Shown: positions 3,622 through 43,325 of the stretch, one piece after another
How positions within the stretch are numbered: the stretch's first letter is position 1
How the letters are laid out: the number at the start of each line of letters is the position of its first letter
IMG/VR virus record: IMGVR_UViG_3300037189_017920
Location: 1 to 59,964 of that record
Source: a virus
Length of the DNA: 59,964 bases
Direction: 5' to 3' (one strand)
Translations under genes and position numbers: made by a program
The notes under the pieces: model-generated
The model's input: only the letters and a program-made list of their open reading frames with translations
The model's database searches: none
What the model was told of the DNA's origin: nothing

Positions 3622-5732
3622 TTGTTCGTCGACAATGATTTTCCGAAGCTGCTCGGTGCCGAATTATACCGTCCGCATCCTGCGTACGTTGTAGAAATGG
3701 CAGCTGAGCCCGTGGTTGTTCACGACTTGGACGCACGCGTCTAGAGTCCCTCTAGGTGAAAGCCTTTAGGTTAAACTCCGTGAATTGCTGGAAAGCCGGA
3801 CCCGAAAGGGAGGCCAATCAGCAGCCAAGCCAGTCCGAAAAGACTGGAAGGTTCAACGACTAACACTGCTCGAATGCTCTCTCGAAGCGACCGCTCCTTT
3901 CTTAAAGGGGTCTGTTTGGGCGATGGCTGCCTCAGGCAGATAACGACTTACCCAAGTCTTCATCTAACCCACTCCAAAAAACAGTTTGAGTTTCTCCGCT
4001 GGAAAGTGGGAAGGTTAAATCGTATTTTTGGAATAAAACAGCCCATTAAAAGCAGAGAAGCAAACTGTCAGACAGGAAGTTTTCCTGCTTGTCAGTGGTG
4101 GTCTAATCAACAAGAGCTGTTATTACCTATTTATAGGGAACTCTACCCTCACGGTAAAAAAGAGTTTACTGCTTCTTTTTTACGAGACGTAGGGTTAGAA
4201 GGGCTGTCTCTCCTTTATATGGATGACGGCACTTTACATCTCCGCAAGCGTGGCTCATACACGCGTACAGGAGAACCTTATATCAGGGAACGCATTGTAG
4301 AGCTAGCTTTATATATCCCGTACGACACAGCTTTAGTTGTCTCGGATTGGATAGAAAGCCTTACAGGCGCCTCATTGGTTCCTCGGGTTCCGATGGCTAA
4401 AAAGAATCCTGATTTATGGAATCTCAGAGCCAACGGTACGTCCGCCAGGCAATTCGTCGAGGTTTTAAAGCCTTACGGTTGTAAAGCTATGAGCTACAAA
4501 TTCGACCTTCGCTACGACACCCGAACAAATCGGGGTAAGTCGAAGTGGAGCGAGGCTGACCGCAACAAATTTGTTGTAGAAGCCGATAAGGTGACACGAG
4601 TGCGGAGCACCCAAACAGAGGTTATACCTGCTGTGGGTGAAGATATAGTCTACTCATCAACGCCCTTAAGTTGATGTTACGTAAGGATAAAGAGCCTTAC
4701 GGTGCTTGCTAAAGCATTACAGGTAGCAAACAACCCGGCCAGACCGTTCAGCTTGACCGTTATCGCTTCTGGGGCAACCCCGGTAGCAAGGAATCACGCG
4801 AGCGTACTGCAGAGCAGACCATTGGTACTGCAAGCAGCAGGAACATTGTCAAGGACAAAGTTCTTGTAACGCTCCGTGAGTATACAGGCCCTGCGGATCC
4901 GTCTGATCCTACTCAGCCCAGCACTTTCAAGATTGCGCGTGAGACGTTAATCACCGCGCAACGTTTGCTGTTGGACACCGGTAATCTTACCGCGTTCCAC
5001 CAGTCCATCGGCTCCTTAACTCTTCTCGACGACTATCGTCGTTGGCGCGACCGGGTGTTCATCAACGAACTCCTTAAAGCTGTTTCTAAGGGCCAAGCTT
5101 CTGACACCCAAGGTGGTTATTACTACCCTGGCGATCTCGCTGTCGGCAGCCTGACTTACGCCAACGCCGAACAAGCTAAGTTCGACGTTAAGGATGACCT
5201 GCTGCGCGTGGTGAAGAGCCTGCGTAAGCGGAATACTCCCACGTATCAGGACGGTTTCTATCGCTGCGTTTGCGATCCGACCTTCCTTATGCACCTCCGC
5301 CAGAACAGCGACTTCCGCGAAGTTGCTCGTTACCCTGGCAACGGGCAGATCAACCCTCTCATGTCCTCGATGCAGCCTAACGCTGCCATCTACATGGGTC
5401 AGGGTTTTGGCCAAGCTACTTTTGTGGCTGGCGAGCCCATCATGCCCACCGGCTTCGTGTTCGAAGGCGTTCGCTTCTTCGAGTCCACGAACATGCCCTC
5501 GCAGGCTCAGTCTGCGACTATCGGTGGTACTGCTGCTTCTTACGAAGCTGCGATCGGTATGTTCTTCGGTCCCCAGAGCGTTGGCGTCGGCATCGGCGGC
5601 AACAATGCTCAGGTGCTCCTGAACAACAACGACGACTTCAGCCGTTTCATCATGATGATTTGGAGCCTGTACGCAGGTTTCGAACTTCTGAACGCTGACT
5701 TCGCGACCATCGCTTACTCCTTTAACGCTTGA
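3622..5732 (+). CDS. major capsid protein, split by a group I intron
   Basis: Exon 1 is 3622-3728 and exon 2 is 4724-5732, together 371 residues. Exon 1 starts at TTG with GGGAG eight bases upstream and reads FVDNDFPKLLGAELYRPHP...VVVHD. Exon 2 continues SKQPGQTVQLDRYRFWGNPG. Joined at these sites the codon becomes TTT (Phe) and the frame runs on without a stop, whereas unspliced reading meets TAG soon after exon 1. The QTVQLDRYRFWGNPG region and the later capsid-like segment (QDGFYRCVCDPTFLMHLRQN) fit a tailed-phage HK97-fold capsid protein; this is family recognition, not alignment. Followed by GAGGAGATA and a capsid-associated gene. Confidence 0.8.
3729..4723 (+). ncRNA. group I intron in the capsid gene
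   Basis: Core elements are visible: P-like AATTGCTGGAAA (3783-3794), Q-like AATCAGCAGCCAAGCC (3816-3831), R-like GTTCAACGACTA (3851-3862) and S-like GAAGATATAGTC (4639-4650). P1 pairs exon end GACTT (3724-3728) with GAGTC (3744-3748), ending in the expected U-G at the 5' splice site. P10 can form between exon 2 TAG (4724-4726) and CTA at 3741-3743, next to the P1 guide. The intron would end in G at 4723, as group I introns do. Length 995 bases, with the endonuclease frame between R and S, that is in the P8 region. Confidence 0.9.
3874..4674 (+). CDS. LAGLIDADG homing endonuclease, intron-encoded
   Basis: 266 residues with two LAGLIDADG-type helices: FLKGVCLGDGCL (about 9-20) and LSLLYMDDGTL (about 111-121), each with the acidic residue that binds metal at the active site. 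A monomeric two-motif enzyme of this kind cuts an intronless capsid gene and drives intron spread. The frame lies in the P8 region of the intron. Its last residues are coded by the S element and the following core, so coding and ribozyme sequence overlap. Both motifs look intact, so activity is plausible. Confidence 0.88.
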   Translation: MLSRSDRSFLKGVCLGDGCLRQITTYPSLHLTHSKKQFEFLRWKVGRLNRIFGIKQPIKSREANCQTGSFPACQWWSNQQELLLPIYRELYPHGKKEFTASFLRDVGLEGLSLLYMDDGTLHLRKRGSYTRTGEPYIRERIVELALYIPYDTALVVSDWIESLTGASLVPRVPMAKKNPDLWNLRANGTSARQFVEVLKPYGCKAMSYKFDLRYDTRTNRGKSKWSEADRNKFVVEADKVTRVRSTQTEVIPAVGEDIVYSSTPLS

Positions 5733-10962: not shown

Positions 10963-12504
10963 ATGGGCCGCCGTAAGGGGTCTGATAATTTTGGTTTTCG
11001 CGAATTAAAAGCTACAAAAAGCGTAGAGCTGCCTAAAACTATACGAGGAGCGGATAACGTTCAAGAGTTATCTAATCCTCTTTCGTTCGATCGCCGCTTT
11101 CGTCCGGCGTTAAATACAAAGGATTTCAGTTTAGTTAGCGAGTACGATTACGCGTCGCTTTGGACTCGTTGGCGCCGTGGCTATGAGTTAGCCATGTACT
11201 CGCAGCAGGCTTACGACGGCCTTACGTATTCGTTTAAGTACTATCCGACAGGCACAACCGGCGTAGGTGTTTACCTGCCTGGAGTCTGTTTTATGTACCC
11301 GACGATGCGCTCGGATATGCGCATGTGGATGGTCGGCGTCCGCCCCCGTAATTCTTTCAACTTCTTAGACGTCGGTTACTCCATAACTTCTGTAACGCAA
11401 TACGACGACAGCACATACGCTGTTCGGCTAAGTTCCAGGTTTGGTGCTCCTGTCTCCTTTTTTACTGGAGAAGTCGTTTCTAATAAGTTTAACGCGGACG
11501 GTACAGAGAAAGCGTACAACTACAATAATTACACAGTTACAGCAGTTGGTATAAACGATGTACCAAGGTCTCCTACGTATGCCCCTATATTCAATACTTT
11601 ATTTTTATCTGTTGCGAGAGATAAAAGCTGGTCTGTCGTCGACGCGAATACGCTAGCGGTTCCTGCCACGGGTGCTCCCCTCGTAGGCGAATACTTGACT
11701 ACGGAGATGCGGGCACAGTGCACCTGTCCAGACTTCTTAAGTCGCGAAAATGTAAATCTCTGGGAAACAAGTCTCAAGAAACGATATCCGTTTACTCGTG
11801 TTCAGAACTTGGACCCCGGTATTTACGACGCCGGTGCCGGGCGTACGCCCCGCGTGGTCAACGCTCCGGACGACCCCGGTTTTGCACGTTCCTTTGGTTT
11901 TATATACCTCAACCAAATTTACGATATTCCCAAGTTCGATGAGCGCCCTTACTCAGATCCTAACGTTTATTACTACCAGCCTAAATGGTGCAAACACATA
12001 TATGCTGCTATGTGGGACATGCAGTTGCGTTACAACCAACAAAACGCAACATCTCCGTGGGTGTTACATCAACCAAGTGACGAACCTTTAAACGAGTACT
12101 ACCGAGAAAAGTTCGACAAAGATTTAGCTAAACAGTCTGATTTTTTAGAGAGGGAGAGAAATCTGGTTTGGTGGCAGCGGCACAGTCCTGCTAAGGACGC
12201 TATGCCTAATCGGATGATGAAATCCGATATGTATAACATGATGAGTAAAACATTAAACTCAGGCGATTTAGACAGCTTAAACGAACTTAGAGCGCCTTCG
12301 TTTGAGATGTATACATTTGATGAGTTTAATCCGTTTGAGCCTATTACGTTGACTGGACTTCAAGTTTATGACGGAGGCACATATACTGCAGGCTCTAACG
12401 TCGTGTATCCTGGGTCGCCGGTTCGAACGCTTGACGGCAGCACATACGCTAACGGAACTCAAATCCCGCCTCTTGCGTATTCTCTGAACGGAGGAACTTA
12501 CTAA
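10963..12504 (+). CDS. large virion protein with SWIM-like zinc motif
   Basis: 513 residues, Tyr-rich. CTCPDFLSR at about residue 251 and WCKHIYAAMW about 90 residues later together make CxC...CxH, the zinc pattern of SWIM domains, here with an unusually long spacer. The rest (SEYDYASLWTRWRRGYELAMY and others) looks structural. The stop overlaps the next start as TAATG. SWIM domains bind zinc and nucleic acid or protein; a structural zinc site in a virion protein is the simplest reading. Confidence 0.55.
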   Translation: MGRRKGSDNFGFRELKATKSVELPKTIRGADNVQELSNPLSFDRRFRPALNTKDFSLVSEYDYASLWTRWRRGYELAMYSQQAYDGLTYSFKYYPTGTTGVGVYLPGVCFMYPTMRSDMRMWMVGVRPRNSFNFLDVGYSITSVTQYDDSTYAVRLSSRFGAPVSFFTGEVVSNKFNADGTEKAYNYNNYTVTAVGINDVPRSPTYAPIFNTLFLSVARDKSWSVVDANTLAVPATGAPLVGEYLTTEMRAQCTCPDFLSRENVNLWETSLKKRYPFTRVQNLDPGIYDAGAGRTPRVVNAPDDPGFARSFGFIYLNQIYDIPKFDERPYSDPNVYYYQPKWCKHIYAAMWDMQLRYNQQNATSPWVLHQPSDEPLNEYYREKFDKDLAKQSDFLERERNLVWWQRHSPAKDAMPNRMMKSDMYNMMSKTLNSGDLDSLNELRAPSFEMYTFDEFNPFEPITLTGLQVYDGGTYTAGSNVVYPGSPVRTLDGSTYANGTQIPPLAYSLNGGTY

Positions 12505-13250
12505 TGACTTCCACACCTGTTGTATTTCTATTAAAAAGATCTGGTCTCGCGTCAGATAGACCTAGCGGTACGATCTTGACGCCCGGCGAACCGGCAATTT
12601 GTTTCGCCGCCGTGGATCCCGGCGTCTATTTTGAAGATTCTGCCGGCTCTATTCGAAAAGTTGGACCGCCGCACTACGGCACTTCCGGACCTAACTCCAC
12701 GCCGGCAGGGCTTCCTGGAAACTCAATCGGCGAATTATGGACTGACTCAAACGGCGGTTACGCATATTTAAAAGTTTGGACCGGCGCAGCTTGGAAGAAA
12801 GTTGATTCCGGATACGCCGATGTCGCCGGTACAGCGCTCAGTGGAACGTTTGCTTCACAAGCCGATACAGCAATTCTGGCGTCAGGCGCTGTACTTGCGT
12901 CAGGAGCTATTGGAGCACGTATTGCATCAGGTACCTTAATTGCGTCAGGTGCTATAACTGCTAATACAGCAACGCTTTCTTCGGGTTCGGTCTTAGCCTC
13001 TGGCGCAATCGGTGCGTTCTTAGCTTCGGGCGCAATTAGCGCATCAGGTGCTGTTTCGGCTAATACAGCAACCTTGGCATCCGGTTGCATACTGGCCTCA
13101 GGAGTTGTTGCTGGAGCCAGCGTGGTTAGTAGCGGACTACCTACAGCAGCAAGCTACCCGTCAGGCACCTTCTACTACACGGTGTATGGATCCGGTGCGT
13201 TCACAGCCGGACTCTACATTCGTGCCTCGGATACCTGGCTTCTGGTTTAA
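12504..13250 (+). CDS. fibre protein with ASGA repeats
   Basis: 248 residues. The N-terminal third is an attachment-type domain (LTPGEPAICFAAVDPGVYFEDSAG, then GELWTDSNGGYAYLKVWTG). Residues ~110-215 repeat short Ala-Ser-Gly units (LASGAVLASGAIGARIASGT and similar), as in an elongated trimeric shaft. A small C-terminal cap follows (YPSGTFYYTVYGSGAFTAGL). Starts on the upstream stop (TAATG), so the two are probably translationally coupled. Confidence 0.65.
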   Translation: MTSTPVVFLLKRSGLASDRPSGTILTPGEPAICFAAVDPGVYFEDSAGSIRKVGPPHYGTSGPNSTPAGLPGNSIGELWTDSNGGYAYLKVWTGAAWKKVDSGYADVAGTALSGTFASQADTAILASGAVLASGAIGARIASGTLIASGAITANTATLSSGSVLASGAIGAFLASGAISASGAVSANTATLASGCILASGVVAGASVVSSGLPTAASYPSGTFYYTVYGSGAFTAGLYIRASDTWLLV

Positions 13251-13777
13251 TTCCTGAGAGTGCTCTTGAGGAACCACGAGGCTTTGAAGCTTGCCCCGAC
13301 TAAGTCGGCCATGTAGTTCTCGACGTCAGGCGCTTGAACCTTTCGAGCCAGTGTGCCTACGTCTTTTGCCATGAAGCCACAGGTCTCAAGATTTTTCAAA
13401 TAAACCGTTAGGGCTTCGCGGGCTTCGTAAGATTTAACGTGCTTAAAGCCCTTGTATGCCGTCAGCAAACCTCGCTGACACATCGGCATAAGGAAGTCCA
13501 TCGACCGCACGAACTCAGCAATGGCGTCGAACTGAGTAATGTGTGCGTCGTACTGACCTTTTAAGAACTCGTGGATGGGTAGAAAAAGCGGCCCCTCGAT
13601 GTTTAAGTGAATTAAGTGACTCTGTGTGTAGAGCTGGTGTACATACGACGAAAGAGACACCAGCGAGAGGATTAATTCCTCCACTGGTGCCTCGGTTTCG
13701 ACTTCCGGGCCTTCGTTGGGCTCAACTTCCCCGTCTGTAGGAACCTGAGCCGTGTTGAAAGAACCGGAAAACGTCAT
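13247..13777 (-). CDS. dps: Dps-like ferritin (DNA-protecting iron-binding protein)
   Basis: 176 residues. After an acidic N-terminal extension, IHLNIEGPLFLPIHEFLKGQ and FDAIAEFVRSM match the Dps signature (HxNxxG, then LHE, then DxxAE). Ferroxidase ligands H57, H69, D84 and E88 are present; the aspartate usual a few residues after HE is replaced by Lys. The C-terminus SWFLKSTL also fits the family. Dps oxidises Fe(II) with peroxide and shields DNA. Encoded opposite to the surrounding virion genes, next to a minus-strand HTH gene, so the pair forms a separate cassette. Convergent with the fibre gene, overlapping by four bases. Confidence 0.8.
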   Translation of the reverse strand: MTFSGSFNTAQVPTDGEVEPNEGPEVETEAPVEELILSLVSLSSYVHQLYTQSHLIHLNIEGPLFLPIHEFLKGQYDAHITQFDAIAEFVRSMDFLMPMCQRGLLTAYKGFKHVKSYEAREALTVYLKNLETCGFMAKDVGTLARKVQAPDVENYMADLVGASFKASWFLKSTLRN

Positions 13778-13785
13778 GATCTAGC

Positions 13786-14049
13786 TCAAATGGTGCAGTT
13801 AGCTGCCGTGGCAACCTCGTCTTCTACTTTAGTGGCAGAAGAACTCTTGAGGTAATCCTCCAGAGCGCTCTTGTTGACACGGTACAGGGACTTGGCGCCG
13901 TTGGGCTGCAGGTTCACGTACACCGACTTGGGCCAACCGCCAGGCTGACTCGCTTCAGATAACGCAATGCGCTTGCGGACAAAACCGGAGCTGCAGTTCA
14001 GTAATTCAGCTGTTTCTGCGATGGTGAGGAGAGATTTACCTTCCGACAT
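13786..14049 (-). CDS. excisionase/MerR-like small HTH protein
   Basis: 87 residues from the ATG at 14049 (MSEGKSLLTIAETAELLNCS). TIAETAELLNCSSGFVRKRI is a winged-helix HTH_17/excisionase-type reading head, followed by a wing with Tyr-Val and a basic strand. Ends in VATAANCTI. Upstream of the start on the minus strand lies AT-rich sequence (TAATATATA around 14080) that could be its promoter. Probably a regulator of itself and the Dps gene just downstream; no recombinase is nearby. Confidence 0.65.
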   Translation of the reverse strand: MSEGKSLLTIAETAELLNCSSGFVRKRIALSEASQPGGWPKSVYVNLQPNGAKSLYRVNKSALEDYLKSSSATKVEDEVATAANCTI

Positions 14050-14178
14050 TAGAGAAGCGGAATAAAAGCAACGGCTATATATTACCTTTATTTGCTGTGT
14101 GCGCAAGCGTATGTGCCAAACCTAATGCCTTTTTTATGTTTCGGTTGGTATGCTTGTAAGAGCCACCTGAGACCAAAA

Positions 14179-14424
14179 ATGATTCGGCTAGCAGGAGAGG
14201 TCTTTAAAGGGTACAATCAGCCGAAACGAGACGTTCAAAGCGGCAAAGAGTACTCCGTGGCAGCTAAAGAAGGCAATACGGTGCGCCTAGTCCGCTTTGG
14301 CGACCCCAACATGAAGAACCGCAGCAACGAACCGGACCGTAAAGCTGCGTTCAGGTCTCGCCACAGCTGTGACGAGCAAAAAAGCAAACTGAGCGCAGGA
14401 TACTGGTCCTGTAAAAACTGGTAA
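14179..14424 (+). CDS. small basic phage protein (KPKR...RFGDP...SAGYW type)
   Basis: 81 residues from ATG at 14179 (MIRLAGEVFKGYNQPKRDVQ). The run RLVRFGDPNM, then AAFRSRHSC and SAGYWSCKNW match a small basic protein widespread in phage genomes of many hosts. It has conserved Cys residues and no assigned function I know of. It starts 129 bases right of the divergent HTH gene, so the region between is a control region. Confidence 0.7.
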   Translation: MIRLAGEVFKGYNQPKRDVQSGKEYSVAAKEGNTVRLVRFGDPNMKNRSNEPDRKAAFRSRHSCDEQKSKLSAGYWSCKNW

Positions 14425-14543: not shown

Positions 14544-14795
14544 ATGGCTTCGCGTAAAGGGGGGAACATCGAATGCGGGCTTACGCTCGAAGACGAATTT
14601 GTGTTGACTCGAATCAGAGCCAAAGCTCACTCGTTAAAAAGCAAAGACCGAGATTCGTATCTTTGGAAGACTATTCTTAAATTAATATGTACAGAGCGCG
14701 CTTATAAGACTGTTTTAAAAGAAGTCGGCGTCCGCGTGGATACAAATATCAATTTATTCGACGACGAAGACACCCAGCCTGCTGATCATGCCTGA
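14544..14795 (+). CDS. hypothetical small protein
   Basis: 83 residues, starting MASRKGGNIECGLTLEDEFV. Basic and helical in the middle (RIRAKAHSLKSKDRDSYLWK), acidic at the end (FDDEDTQPADHA). Preceded by GGAGTCC. Overlaps the next start by eight bases, so it is coupled to the lysin gene. Not recognised. The 119 bases before it hold no gene or clear terminator that I can see. Confidence 0.5.
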   Translation: MASRKGGNIECGLTLEDEFVLTRIRAKAHSLKSKDRDSYLWKTILKLICTERAYKTVLKEVGVRVDTNINLFDDEDTQPADHA

Positions 14796-36313: not shown

Positions 36314-36922
36314 ATGGCCGCTCGCAGACCGCTTGTTTTAATCAGTGGCGTTCTTACCGAGCTGCCCCCTGGCGACGGTGTGCTCGGCGGGGAAATTACT
36401 GCCGGTAGTGGCTTAGCCGGCGGCGGTTTACTTAATCCGACAGCACGTTTCGACGTCAACCTGGCTCCGAACCCCAGCGGTCTGATTTTTGTAAACGGCG
36501 CGCTCGGGATTGACGGCAAAGCCGAAGCTTCTGGCTTGGCGGCTCAGCAACTCGCAGCCGCTGCATACAATCTTGCACTGAGTGGACCGTATTCCCCTGA
36601 TCAGGGCGAAGTCAAGTTCCTCGATTCTCAGATCTCGTACGCCACTGTCGGCGAACAGCTTGATTCGTTCCCTAGCGGCACGTTCCGTAACTGCATCTAC
36701 ACCGTTCAAGTTGCGCGTGGTAACGAATCGCAAAGCTCTCAGCTTCACTTAGTACACAATAACTTAGCTGTTACTCTTTCTACTATTTCAAATCTTGTCA
36801 CCAGCGGCACTCTGGCTGCGTACAGCGGCGCGCTTGTCGGTGGCACAATCGAGCTGAATGCGTTCCCGACAACCGCCGACGCTACTCGCTTCCGGATTCT
36901 TCGTCAGGGGCAGGCTTACTAA
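36314..36922 (+). CDS. appendage/fibre protein
   Basis: 202 residues starting MAARRPLVLISGVLTELPPG, then GDGVLGGEITAGSGLAGGGL, with a sequence typical of bases of fibre proteins (DxVxGG...AGSGLxGGG). Preceded by AAAGGAGAC about ten bases before the ATG. Last of the plus-strand fibre run; its end overlaps the convergent glycosyltransferase by four bases. Confidence 0.55.
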   Translation: MAARRPLVLISGVLTELPPGDGVLGGEITAGSGLAGGGLLNPTARFDVNLAPNPSGLIFVNGALGIDGKAEASGLAAQQLAAAAYNLALSGPYSPDQGEVKFLDSQISYATVGEQLDSFPSGTFRNCIYTVQVARGNESQSSQLHLVHNNLAVTLSTISNLVTSGTLAAYSGALVGGTIELNAFPTTADATRFRILRQGQAY

Positions 36923-37803
36923 ACCGCTAGTTTCTGACACATTGCTGTGAACTCGTTGCGCCAACGAGTTTTCCAGTGCTCCCAAAATCCGTTACATAAT
37001 TTTTGAAGGGTTGGCCATTCGCCCTGCTTTTCGACCTGCTCGACAATTTCGAAGCACTCGGCCCACGTATTTCCGATGATGAACGGCAAGTCCGTTTCGC
37101 CCAGAAACACGGCGTGCCAATACGAAGGCTGAATGTTCATGCGTTCTGTTGACCGCAGTGCCACTGGTACGCAACCGGCTTCTAGCGCCTCGTACAGCCT
37201 GAACGAATCCATGCTGTCCTGCCCCGGCGGGCATAGTGCGTATCTGCTGTCTTGCAACATGTTTACGTAGTCTTGTGTATCTAAAGCGTCCGCGGCCCCA
37301 AATCCGCTACACGAGTGCGTTTTATTCGGACCCAGCTTGGCAAACGTATCGAGCATCTTTTGCCGTTCACCGTGCAGAGTTCCTGCGAACGACCAAATCA
37401 AGTCCCGCTCAACTCCTGTGTTTTTTAGATATTTCTGGAAGTCCCGCTTGTAGCCCAATCCAAATGTCTTGATTTTTGGGTGCGTGAATTGCAGCGGATT
37501 GAAGTAGTTACGTAGTAATCCAACACACGCTGGGTCGTGCAGCCACTCGCAGGGTTCGATAAGATTCTCGTCCGAAGTTAAAACAATTACATAACGCTTT
37601 GAGTTCTGTCGCAGTCGTTCCAGAATCGGCCTGTAGTTAACCGCGTGGTTAGCAATTAGAACTGTATTTTTATCTGTTCTAATTTTTGTCTGCTCGAATT
37701 CGATGTCGATGTAGTCCGACACATCTCCCAACAGGTACCTGAGCCAATCAACTTCCCAAAATGTTTCGTCTTTTGTCAACCATTGAACGTTTACCGGATT
37801 CAT
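36919..37803 (-). CDS. exostosin (GT47)-like glycosyltransferase
   Basis: About 294 residues from ATG at 37803 (TTG at 37833 is an alternative). SRYALCPPGQDSMDSFRLYE, then ALEAGCVPVAL is the exostosin/GT47 donor-site pattern (LCPxGxxxxSxRxxEAxxxGCxPV). WSFAGTLHGERQKML also fits. It would add a sugar to a virion protein, the phage receptor or another acceptor. Isolated on the minus strand beside fibre genes, so fibre glycosylation or receptor masking are attractive but unproven. Confidence 0.72.
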   Translation of the reverse strand: MNPVNVQWLTKDETFWEVDWLRYLLGDVSDYIDIEFEQTKIRTDKNTVLIANHAVNYRPILERLRQNSKRYVIVLTSDENLIEPCEWLHDPACVGLLRNYFNPLQFTHPKIKTFGLGYKRDFQKYLKNTGVERDLIWSFAGTLHGERQKMLDTFAKLGPNKTHSCSGFGAADALDTQDYVNMLQDSRYALCPPGQDSMDSFRLYEALEAGCVPVALRSTERMNIQPSYWHAVFLGETDLPFIIGNTWAECFEIVEQVEKQGEWPTLQKLCNGFWEHWKTRWRNEFTAMCQKLAV

Positions 37804-37883
37804 TTTGATTGTGGAAAGGTTGACCCAGTGCAAGCCGTCAGTAGTGTAGGCGTTAAAATTGGTTGTGGTTTGGAGTTCCTGAT

Positions 37884-38240
37884 GTGAGCGGTAAGCACTG
37901 TGTGCAGGAACTGTACCGAGCCAATTCGGCCAAGCTCAACGATGAGGCTTACCTGCGCACTGCCCTAGCAGCGGCCGCCGAGGCCTCAAACGCGACCCTG
38001 TTGGACATCCGCACTCACGCGTTCGAGCCCCAAGGCGTCACTGGTTTTGCGTTGCTTGCCGAAAGTCACATCAGTATCCACACGTGGCCCGAGCACGGCT
38101 ATGCCGCCGTGGATGTATTTACCTGCGGCGATACGACCGATCCCGAGCGCGCCTGTTCGTATCTTGCAGAAGCTCTAGAAGCTCGGAGTCAACACGTAAT
38201 TACTTTAGATCGATACCTTCCAGAATTATCTAAAACTTAA
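37884..38240 (+). CDS. speD: S-adenosylmethionine decarboxylase (prokaryotic SpeD)
   Basis: 118 residues from GTG at 37884, with GGAG eight bases upstream; a longer TTG start at 37863 would lack this spacing. GVTGFALLAESHISIHTWPE holds the self-cleavage site E60-S61, where Ser becomes the pyruvoyl group, and FTCG holds the conserved Cys81. It decarboxylates AdoMet to make the propylamine donor for spermidine. Common in cyanophages as an auxiliary metabolic gene. Length fits the family's short form. Confidence 0.92.
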   Translation: MSGKHCVQELYRANSAKLNDEAYLRTALAAAAEASNATLLDIRTHAFEPQGVTGFALLAESHISIHTWPEHGYAAVDVFTCGDTTDPERACSYLAEALEARSQHVITLDRYLPELSKT

Positions 38241-42587: not shown

Positions 42588-43325
42588 GTGGCCGCACCAA
42601 AAGATTTATCGAGTGTAAAACTCGATTGGATTACGTTTGAAGCTGAGAAAGTAATTGCCAAACACGCTAGGGTCTCCACAAAAGACCCCGAGCGAGAAGA
42701 TTATGTAAAACTTTTAAAGTATTGTCTGCGTGAGAACCACGTAAGTATTTTTGAACAAGCATCTATTTCGTTTGAGATTATTACATCTCGTGCTGTGTCG
42801 GCGCAGCTGATTCGTCACCGTAGTTTCCACTTCCAGGAACTGTCTGCTCGGTACTCGGACCCAAGCTATGTCTTGGATTCGTATGCGGAAAAGTGCTGGC
42901 AGTTTGAGTTGCGTGCTCAGGACGCCAAAAACCGTCAGAACAGTCTGGAGTACGAGGATTCAGATATTGAAGATCAATTCAGAGACCGGATTAAAGATCT
43001 GTTTGACCAAAACCAAAAGCTCTACCGCGACATGCTTACAGCCGGCGTGGCCAAAGAGTGTGCTCGAAACCTGCTCTGGATGTGTATGCCGACCCGACTT
43101 CACATGAGCGGCACGGTCCGTGACTGGTTGTTCTACGTTGGCGTCAGGTCTGCGCCTGGCACTCAGAAAGAGCACAAGTACATCTCAGATCGCATCGGGT
43201 GCTTTATGTCTAGTTACCTGCCGACGATCGCCCTCGCTGTCCGTGAACTAGCCGAGGAAGATAAAAACCCCGGATTGAAGGGGTGGAAGCATATCGATGA
43301 TTTCTGGAAAACAGTTTTGATTTAA
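42588..43325 (+). CDS. thyX: flavin-dependent thymidylate synthase ThyX
   Basis: 245 residues, GTG start in the context GCCGTGGCC. The ThyX signature RHRx7SxR is intact at 76-88 (RHRSFHFQELSAR). ThyX makes dTMP from dUMP using methylene-THF and FAD, providing thymidine for phage DNA. Frequent in cyanophages and in their hosts. Followed by a bidirectional terminator and the convergent replication operon. Confidence 0.95.
   Translation: MAAPKDLSSVKLDWITFEAEKVIAKHARVSTKDPEREDYVKLLKYCLRENHVSIFEQASISFEIITSRAVSAQLIRHRSFHFQELSARYSDPSYVLDSYAEKCWQFELRAQDAKNRQNSLEYEDSDIEDQFRDRIKDLFDQNQKLYRDMLTAGVAKECARNLLWMCMPTRLHMSGTVRDWLFYVGVRSAPGTQKEHKYISDRIGCFMSSYLPTIALAVRELAEEDKNPGLKGWKHIDDFWKTVLI

What the first reader, a model, noticed from the sequence alone, without database searches (positions are those of the whole stretch)
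13247..14049. Phage-encoded Dps-like ferritin with its own small HTH gene, opposite to virion genes
H57, H69, D84 and E88 are retained, while the usual Asp near HE is Lys. Dps stores iron and limits Fenton damage. A phage copy could protect phage DNA while the host photosystem collapses, or take iron. The adjacent HTH gene suggests separate control.
Basis: partly seen in the sequence, partly recalled or inferred. Interest (0 to 1): 0.65.

Follow-up and report, generated by a model that had tools for sequence, protein, structure and literature searches.

The report
Phage Dps mini-ferritin, altered iron site
A group of viruses that probably infect cyanobacteria carries its own version of Dps, the bacterial iron-storage cage, always next to a small DNA-binding gene and with two consistent changes at the iron-oxidising site that the bacterial Dps proteins examined here lack; virus-borne Dps genes are known, but this conserved altered form looks like a new variant.

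Summary
ORF 13247-13777(-), 176 aa, is a Dps-type mini-ferritin: Pfam Ferritin above cut-off, AlphaFold pLDDT 84 with helices A-B-BC-C-D, target-normalised TM up to 0.92 to solved Dps. At least 293 IMG/VR contigs encode relatives. In 128 distinct phage proteins the four ligands never vary, position 73 is never Asp/Glu (Lys in 102), and the Trp of the cellular HWN motif is Leu/Phe. In 35 proteobacterial Dps that Trp is invariant and the residue matching Lys73 is Glu in 34. The HTH gene precedes dps in 86 of 86 loci with upstream DNA, with a recurrent -10-like element: a small conserved operon facing tail genes. I infer an iron-scavenging cage made under its own control during infection. Phage Dps is known (S-EIV1, phage G, LP65, SU10); this is a phage-specific variant with a remodelled ferroxidase centre. 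Oxidant, timing and cell-versus-virion location are untested. An adjacent NblA-like gene deserves follow-up.

The parts
13247..13777 (-). dps: 176-aa Dps-type mini-ferritin; H57, H69, D84, E88 kept, Lys73 in place of the site-B carboxylate, Leu58 in place of Trp, acidic N-terminal tail (residues 1-34)
13786..14049 (-). 87-aa HTH (MerR/excisionase-like) protein, first gene of the HTH-dps operon, 8 nt upstream of dps; invariant Cys19
   Evidence: both curated models score just below cut-off
14079..14106 (-). promoter-like element upstream of the HTH gene: TTGCGC, 16 nt, TAATAT (35 nt before ATG); the TAnnnT element recurs 33-40 nt before the start in 32 of 35 non-redundant loci
   Evidence: not found by the strict scan
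12504..13250 (+). convergent minor-tail-like gene whose 3' end overlaps dps by 4 nt (same overlap in 65 of 86 loci)
14179..14424 (+). divergent 81-aa gene of unknown function between the HTH and NblA-like genes, found in 70 of 86 loci
14544..14795 (+). 83-aa NblA-like gene, conserved neighbour (81 of 89 window-type loci; most others are cut by contig ends)
   Evidence: below the Pfam cut-off

Best explanation
A tailed phage, probably of cyanobacteria, encodes a phage-specific Dps mini-ferritin in a two-gene HTH-dps operon. Shown by sequence or prediction: the Dps fold, the invariant site-A ligands (H57 of one subunit; D84 and E88 of its partner by analogy), the loss of the site-B carboxylate (Lys73) and of the Trp beside the site, the conserved gene pair, purifying selection. 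Inferred: it forms a 12-subunit cage that binds Fe2+ at site A, oxidises and stores it, and so lowers free Fe2+ and peroxide in the infected cell. Lys73 and Leu58 should weaken the second iron site and remove a redox-active side chain, so oxidant choice or rate should differ from cellular Dps. The HTH protein probably regulates its own operon. DNA coating is unlikely because the tail is acidic.
For: Fold and family. Ligands H57/H69/D84/E88 invariant in 128 distinct proteins while position 73 is never Asp/Glu; 35 proteobacterial Dps have Trp at the Leu58 position and 34 have Glu at the Lys73 position. Strict retention of site A argues for kept iron binding; crystals of most Dps show only one iron, at the His/Asp/Glu site (PMC7762939), and NpDps4 binds iron with Asn at the same position, though with extra His ligands (PMC6675082). 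HTH-dps adjacency 86/86, tight spacing, recurrent -10-like element scoring above all 100 shuffles, strong purifying selection.
Against: No multimer model, iron assay or expression data. A Lys at site B could abolish ferroxidase turnover. The promoter reading fails the strict consensus scan. The host is inferred. The cellular comparison covers Pseudomonadota only; cyanobacterial Dps were compared only through papers and PDB hits.
Confidence: 0.6

Rival explanations
1. The Dps cage is a virion or assembly-associated protein: made together with virion parts, carried in or on the particle, protecting packaged DNA or delivering iron to the next host.
For: dps lies within the virion-gene region in the window type, next to a tail gene; in 65 of 84 S-EIV1-type loci a homologue of the large gene upstream of dps is found nearby. 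Structure search finds Dps-like domains in longer uncultured-phage proteins annotated as prohead protease.
Against: In the window type dps runs opposite to the virion genes with its own regulator and promoter-like element. No packaging signal was found; an N-terminal motif pattern that I tried matched only 10 of 128 proteins.
Confidence: 0.15
2. The protein keeps the cage but is no longer an efficient ferroxidase; it acts as a passive iron or other-metal binder or as a structural or protein-binding cage.
For: Lys, Gly, Asn, Gln or Arg at the site-B position in all 128 proteins and no Trp next to the site.
Against: Four metal ligands are invariant across 128 proteins down to about 41-50% identity, which is not expected without metal binding.
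Confidence: 0.15
3. It is an ordinary host Dps gene recently captured by the phage, doing exactly what host Dps does, including DNA binding.
For: Same fold as cyanobacterial Dps; phages often carry host-derived metabolic genes (PMC5083919, abstract).
Against: No close cellular relative; phage proteins form one clade on a long branch (Pseudomonadota sampling, support 0.75). Dps of the Synechococcus/Prochlorococcus/Cyanobium group examined in PMC6675082 have canonical centres. Acidic tail.
Confidence: 0.04

Closest known systems
Synechococcus phage S-EIV1 DNA-binding ferritin-like protein (AHV82153.1, KJ410740)
   Same: Same clade, 49% identical over the protein (56% over the core); same four ligands, Gly at position 73, Leu at 58
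   Different: No HTH partner; neighbours are a sulfate adenylyltransferase and an HNH-like ORF; less acidic tail
PHROG_3636 'DNA binding protein'
   Same: Phage protein family matched over 144 residues, E 2e-22
   Different: Only a family label; no described ferroxidase change or HTH partner
Other phage Dps: Bacillus phage G gp346, Lactobacillus phages LP65 and Semele, Escherichia phage SU10, uncultured Caudovirales
   Same: Dps fold in phages (Lactobacillus case discussed in PMC6669764)
   Different: 11-22% identical; not found by sequence in the phage records
Cellular Dps with solved structures: PA0962, TpF1, MrgA, C. jejuni Dps
   Same: Fold, helix order, four of five ferroxidase ligands
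   Different: Cellular Dps sampled here carry Trp after the first His and Glu at the position of Lys73
Cyanobacterial His-type Dps (NpDps4, TeDpsA)
   Same: Also lack the site-B carboxylate (Asn67 in NpDps4; PMC6675082)
   Different: They change Asp78 to His and add His164; the phage proteins keep the Asp (D84)

Membership tests
Dps (dodecameric mini-ferritin) | Ferritin-like sequence profile | tested here: met
   PF00210 34.9 bits against 24.5; profile against PDB Dps, best E 3e-12
Dps (dodecameric mini-ferritin) | Four-helix bundle with a short BC helix and no fifth helix | tested here: met
   Model pLDDT 84.3, helices 30-59, 65-92, 101-107, 119-146, 150-174; solved Dps fill the top matches
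Dps (dodecameric mini-ferritin) | Canonical intersubunit ferroxidase centre: 2 His + Asp/Glu from one subunit, Asp + Glu from the other | tested here: not met
   Four of five residues invariant; the site-B carboxylate is absent in 128 of 128. Non-canonical centres are accepted within Dps (NpDps4), so this lowers 'canonical Dps', not 'Dps fold'
Dps (dodecameric mini-ferritin) | 12-mer assembly | not testable with these tools
   No multimer prediction or biochemistry available
Dps (dodecameric mini-ferritin) | Fe2+ oxidation, preferring H2O2 | not testable with these tools
   Needs an assay
DNA-binding Dps | Positively charged N-terminal tail | tested here: not met
   Residues 1-34 net charge -9, pI about 5.2; not all Dps-type proteins bind DNA (PMC7762939)
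HTH_17 / excisionase-family DNA-binding protein | Score above curated cut-off; partner integrase if a true excisionase | tested here: inconclusive
   26.0 of 27 bits Pfam, 27.1 of 28.8 TIGR01764; no tyrosine integrase or serine resolvase in the record, so a regulator is more likely

The most novel reading that the evidence does not exclude
A phage-specific Dps class with a re-engineered ferroxidase centre (site A kept, Lys at site B, no Trp), controlled by an HTH autoregulator that senses redox or iron state (invariant Cys19) and coupled to an NblA-like protein in a divergent module, so that the phage dismantles light harvesting while it holds iron and peroxide in check.
Probability: 0.15. Interest if true: 0.75.

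Novelty: new variant of a known kind. Interest (0 to 1): 0.5.

Why it matters
Phage Dps genes are on record but are mostly noted in passing. Here hundreds of environmental phage contigs keep the gene; the window-type phages keep it with a fixed partner, and the whole clade shares a consistent change at the catalytic site. That suggests that handling of iron or peroxide is part of a standard infection programme and not an accident of gene capture. It offers a natural variant for testing what the second iron site and the nearby Trp do in Dps, and a handle on how phages manage iron in what are probably photosynthetic hosts.

Tried and rejected
The first AlphaFold run with 28 near relatives gave a poor model (pLDDT 65.7) and weak fold matches; it was replaced by the 126-sequence run. 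Strict sigma-70 and terminator scans gave nothing. Literature searches on phage Dps or ferritin gave nothing specific to cyanophages. HTH protein against phage records: no match. The tree does not resolve window-type from S-EIV1-type. A common N-terminal targeting motif: the pattern tried matched only 10 of 128 proteins. A true excisionase: no integrase or resolvase found. A psbA-type gene in the record: no match. A recent host capture was considered and rejected.

Full report
What is there. Pfam Ferritin is hit above its cut-off (34.9 bits against 24.5), PHROG_3636 at E 2e-22, and solved Dps sequences by phmmer and by profile. A structure prediction with 126 phage homologues gives pLDDT 84.3 and the Dps helix order A, B, short BC, C, D, with a low-confidence stretch at residues 1-28. 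Foldseek's best solved matches are Dps proteins, target-normalised TM-score up to 0.92.

How widespread. A profile scan of IMG/VR confirmed 293 contigs with relatives; a scan with an S-EIV1-type protein confirmed 188, overlap between the two not measured. In the species-genome collection the only hit was a contig in a Gammaproteobacteria bin whose neighbouring ORFs I read as primase-like and exonuclease-like, so probably phage DNA. In 399 genomes of that phylum the profile scored 239 bits on this contig and at most 61 elsewhere. Annotated phage records held one relative, in Synechococcus phage S-EIV1; plasmids held only distant cellular Dps below 30% identity among those listed. The family therefore looks like a phage clade, not a recent host capture, with the caveat that cyanobacterial chromosomes were covered only by the pattern-based scan.

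The iron site. In 128 distinct phage proteins (68 window-type, 60 without the window-type neighbours, mostly S-EIV1-type) H57, H69, D84 and E88 never vary. Position 73 is Lys in 102, Gly in 20, and Arg, Asn or Gln in 6; Asp or Glu never occurs. The residue after the first His is Leu in 126 and Phe in 2. By contrast, 35 proteobacterial Dps from two searches have Trp in all 35, and Glu in 34 and Met in 1 at the position of Lys73 (two unrelated chance matches set aside). [quoted passage not shown] NpDps4 has Asn there and still binds iron, with extra His ligands. According to PMC7762939 most Dps crystals show a single iron at the His/Asp/Glu site. So site A is intact here and site B is remodelled. 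What this does to the chemistry is inference. That the Trp beside the site is redox-active in cellular Dps is from my own knowledge of the family.

DNA binding. PMC7762939 ascribes Dps-DNA affinity to a positively charged N-terminal tail. Here residues 1-34 carry net charge -9 and the protein pI is about 5.2; the window-type median is -6, the other group +1. DNA coating by the usual route is unlikely for this protein.

The partner gene and its control. The HTH ORF (13786-14049) lies 8 nt upstream of dps on the same strand. Of 89 window-type loci, all 86 with upstream DNA have it; the other three (L058, L081, L083) are cut by the contig end. The gap is most often 1, 9, 10 or -4 nt. Its matches to HTH_17 and excisionase models fall just below the curated cut-offs; the HTH core and Cys19 are invariant in 55 aligned sequences; no integrase or resolvase was found, so a regulator is the better reading. 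A TAnnnT element lies 33-40 nt before the start codon in 32 of 35 non-redundant loci, and the two-hexamer score exceeds all 100 shuffles, although the strict consensus scan finds nothing. dps and the convergent tail gene overlap by 4 nt in 65 of 86 loci, and no terminator was found between them in the window; late read-through from the tail genes could therefore make antisense RNA over the operon, which is a guess. Selection is purifying: dN 0.18-0.24 for dps against mostly saturated dS.

Host. S-EIV1 shares Dps and, weakly, another gene; the DNA polymerase is nearest to Pseudanabaena phages at 28%; an S-adenosylmethionine decarboxylase occurs here and one is annotated in S-EIV1; an NblA-like gene lies beside the operon. 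Together these favour a cyanobacterial host without proving it.

Mechanism and rank. Most likely the phage makes a small iron cage under its own regulator during infection to limit free Fe2+ and peroxide, with site chemistry altered from that of cellular Dps (0.6). Rivals are a virion-associated cage (0.15), a non-catalytic cage (0.15) and plain host capture (0.04). Novelty: phage Dps are known (S-EIV1; phage G, LP65 and SU10; Lactobacillus phages in PMC6669764); the conserved non-canonical centre and the invariant HTH partner make this a new variant of a known kind. The literature search covered only the open-access library, so absence of a description there does not prove novelty.

Noticed in passing
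window 14544-14795 (+): 83-aa protein with a weak NblA (phycobilisome degradation) match: 15 bits against a cut-off of 25; 7 of 19 family members hit NblA, best E 0.0012. A conserved neighbour of the HTH-dps operon.
   Followed up: partly
window 13786-14049 (-): Cys19 in the HTH core is invariant in 55 aligned HTH proteins, and 41 of 55 have a second Cys within the last 8 residues: a possible thiol or metal switch.
   Followed up: partly
window 14179-14424 (+): 81-aa protein without any NCBIfam match, conserved in 70 of 86 loci between the HTH and NblA-like genes.
   Followed up: partly
BFVD entries A0A6J7XDU5, A0A6J7WPK9, A0A6J7WIS1: Uncultured-phage proteins of 333-763 aa named 'prohead protease' contain a Dps-like domain: a possible ferritin fused to a head-maturation protein.
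   Followed up: no
window 36919-37833 (-): Glycosyltransferase-like ORF (Exostosin GT47, 42 bits; RXYLT1_C, 38 bits; both above cut-off) inside the tail region, on the opposite strand.
   Followed up: no
window 37863-38240 (+) and 42588-43325 (+): S-adenosylmethionine decarboxylase (PF02675, 140 bits) and a thymidylate synthase (phrog_85).
   Followed up: no
window 3874-4674 (+): LAGLIDADG endonuclease (PF03161, 40 bits), upstream of the major head protein ORF at 4965-5732.
   Followed up: no
window 10963-12504 (+): 513-aa conserved ORF in the virion-gene region with a weak SWIM zinc-finger match (16.7 bits, below cut-off) and no PHROG match.
   Followed up: no
L041 (PCBA01000062.1): Contig with primase-like and exonuclease-like ORFs and a related Dps, assigned to a Gammaproteobacteria genome bin; probably a phage contig in the wrong bin.
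   Followed up: partly
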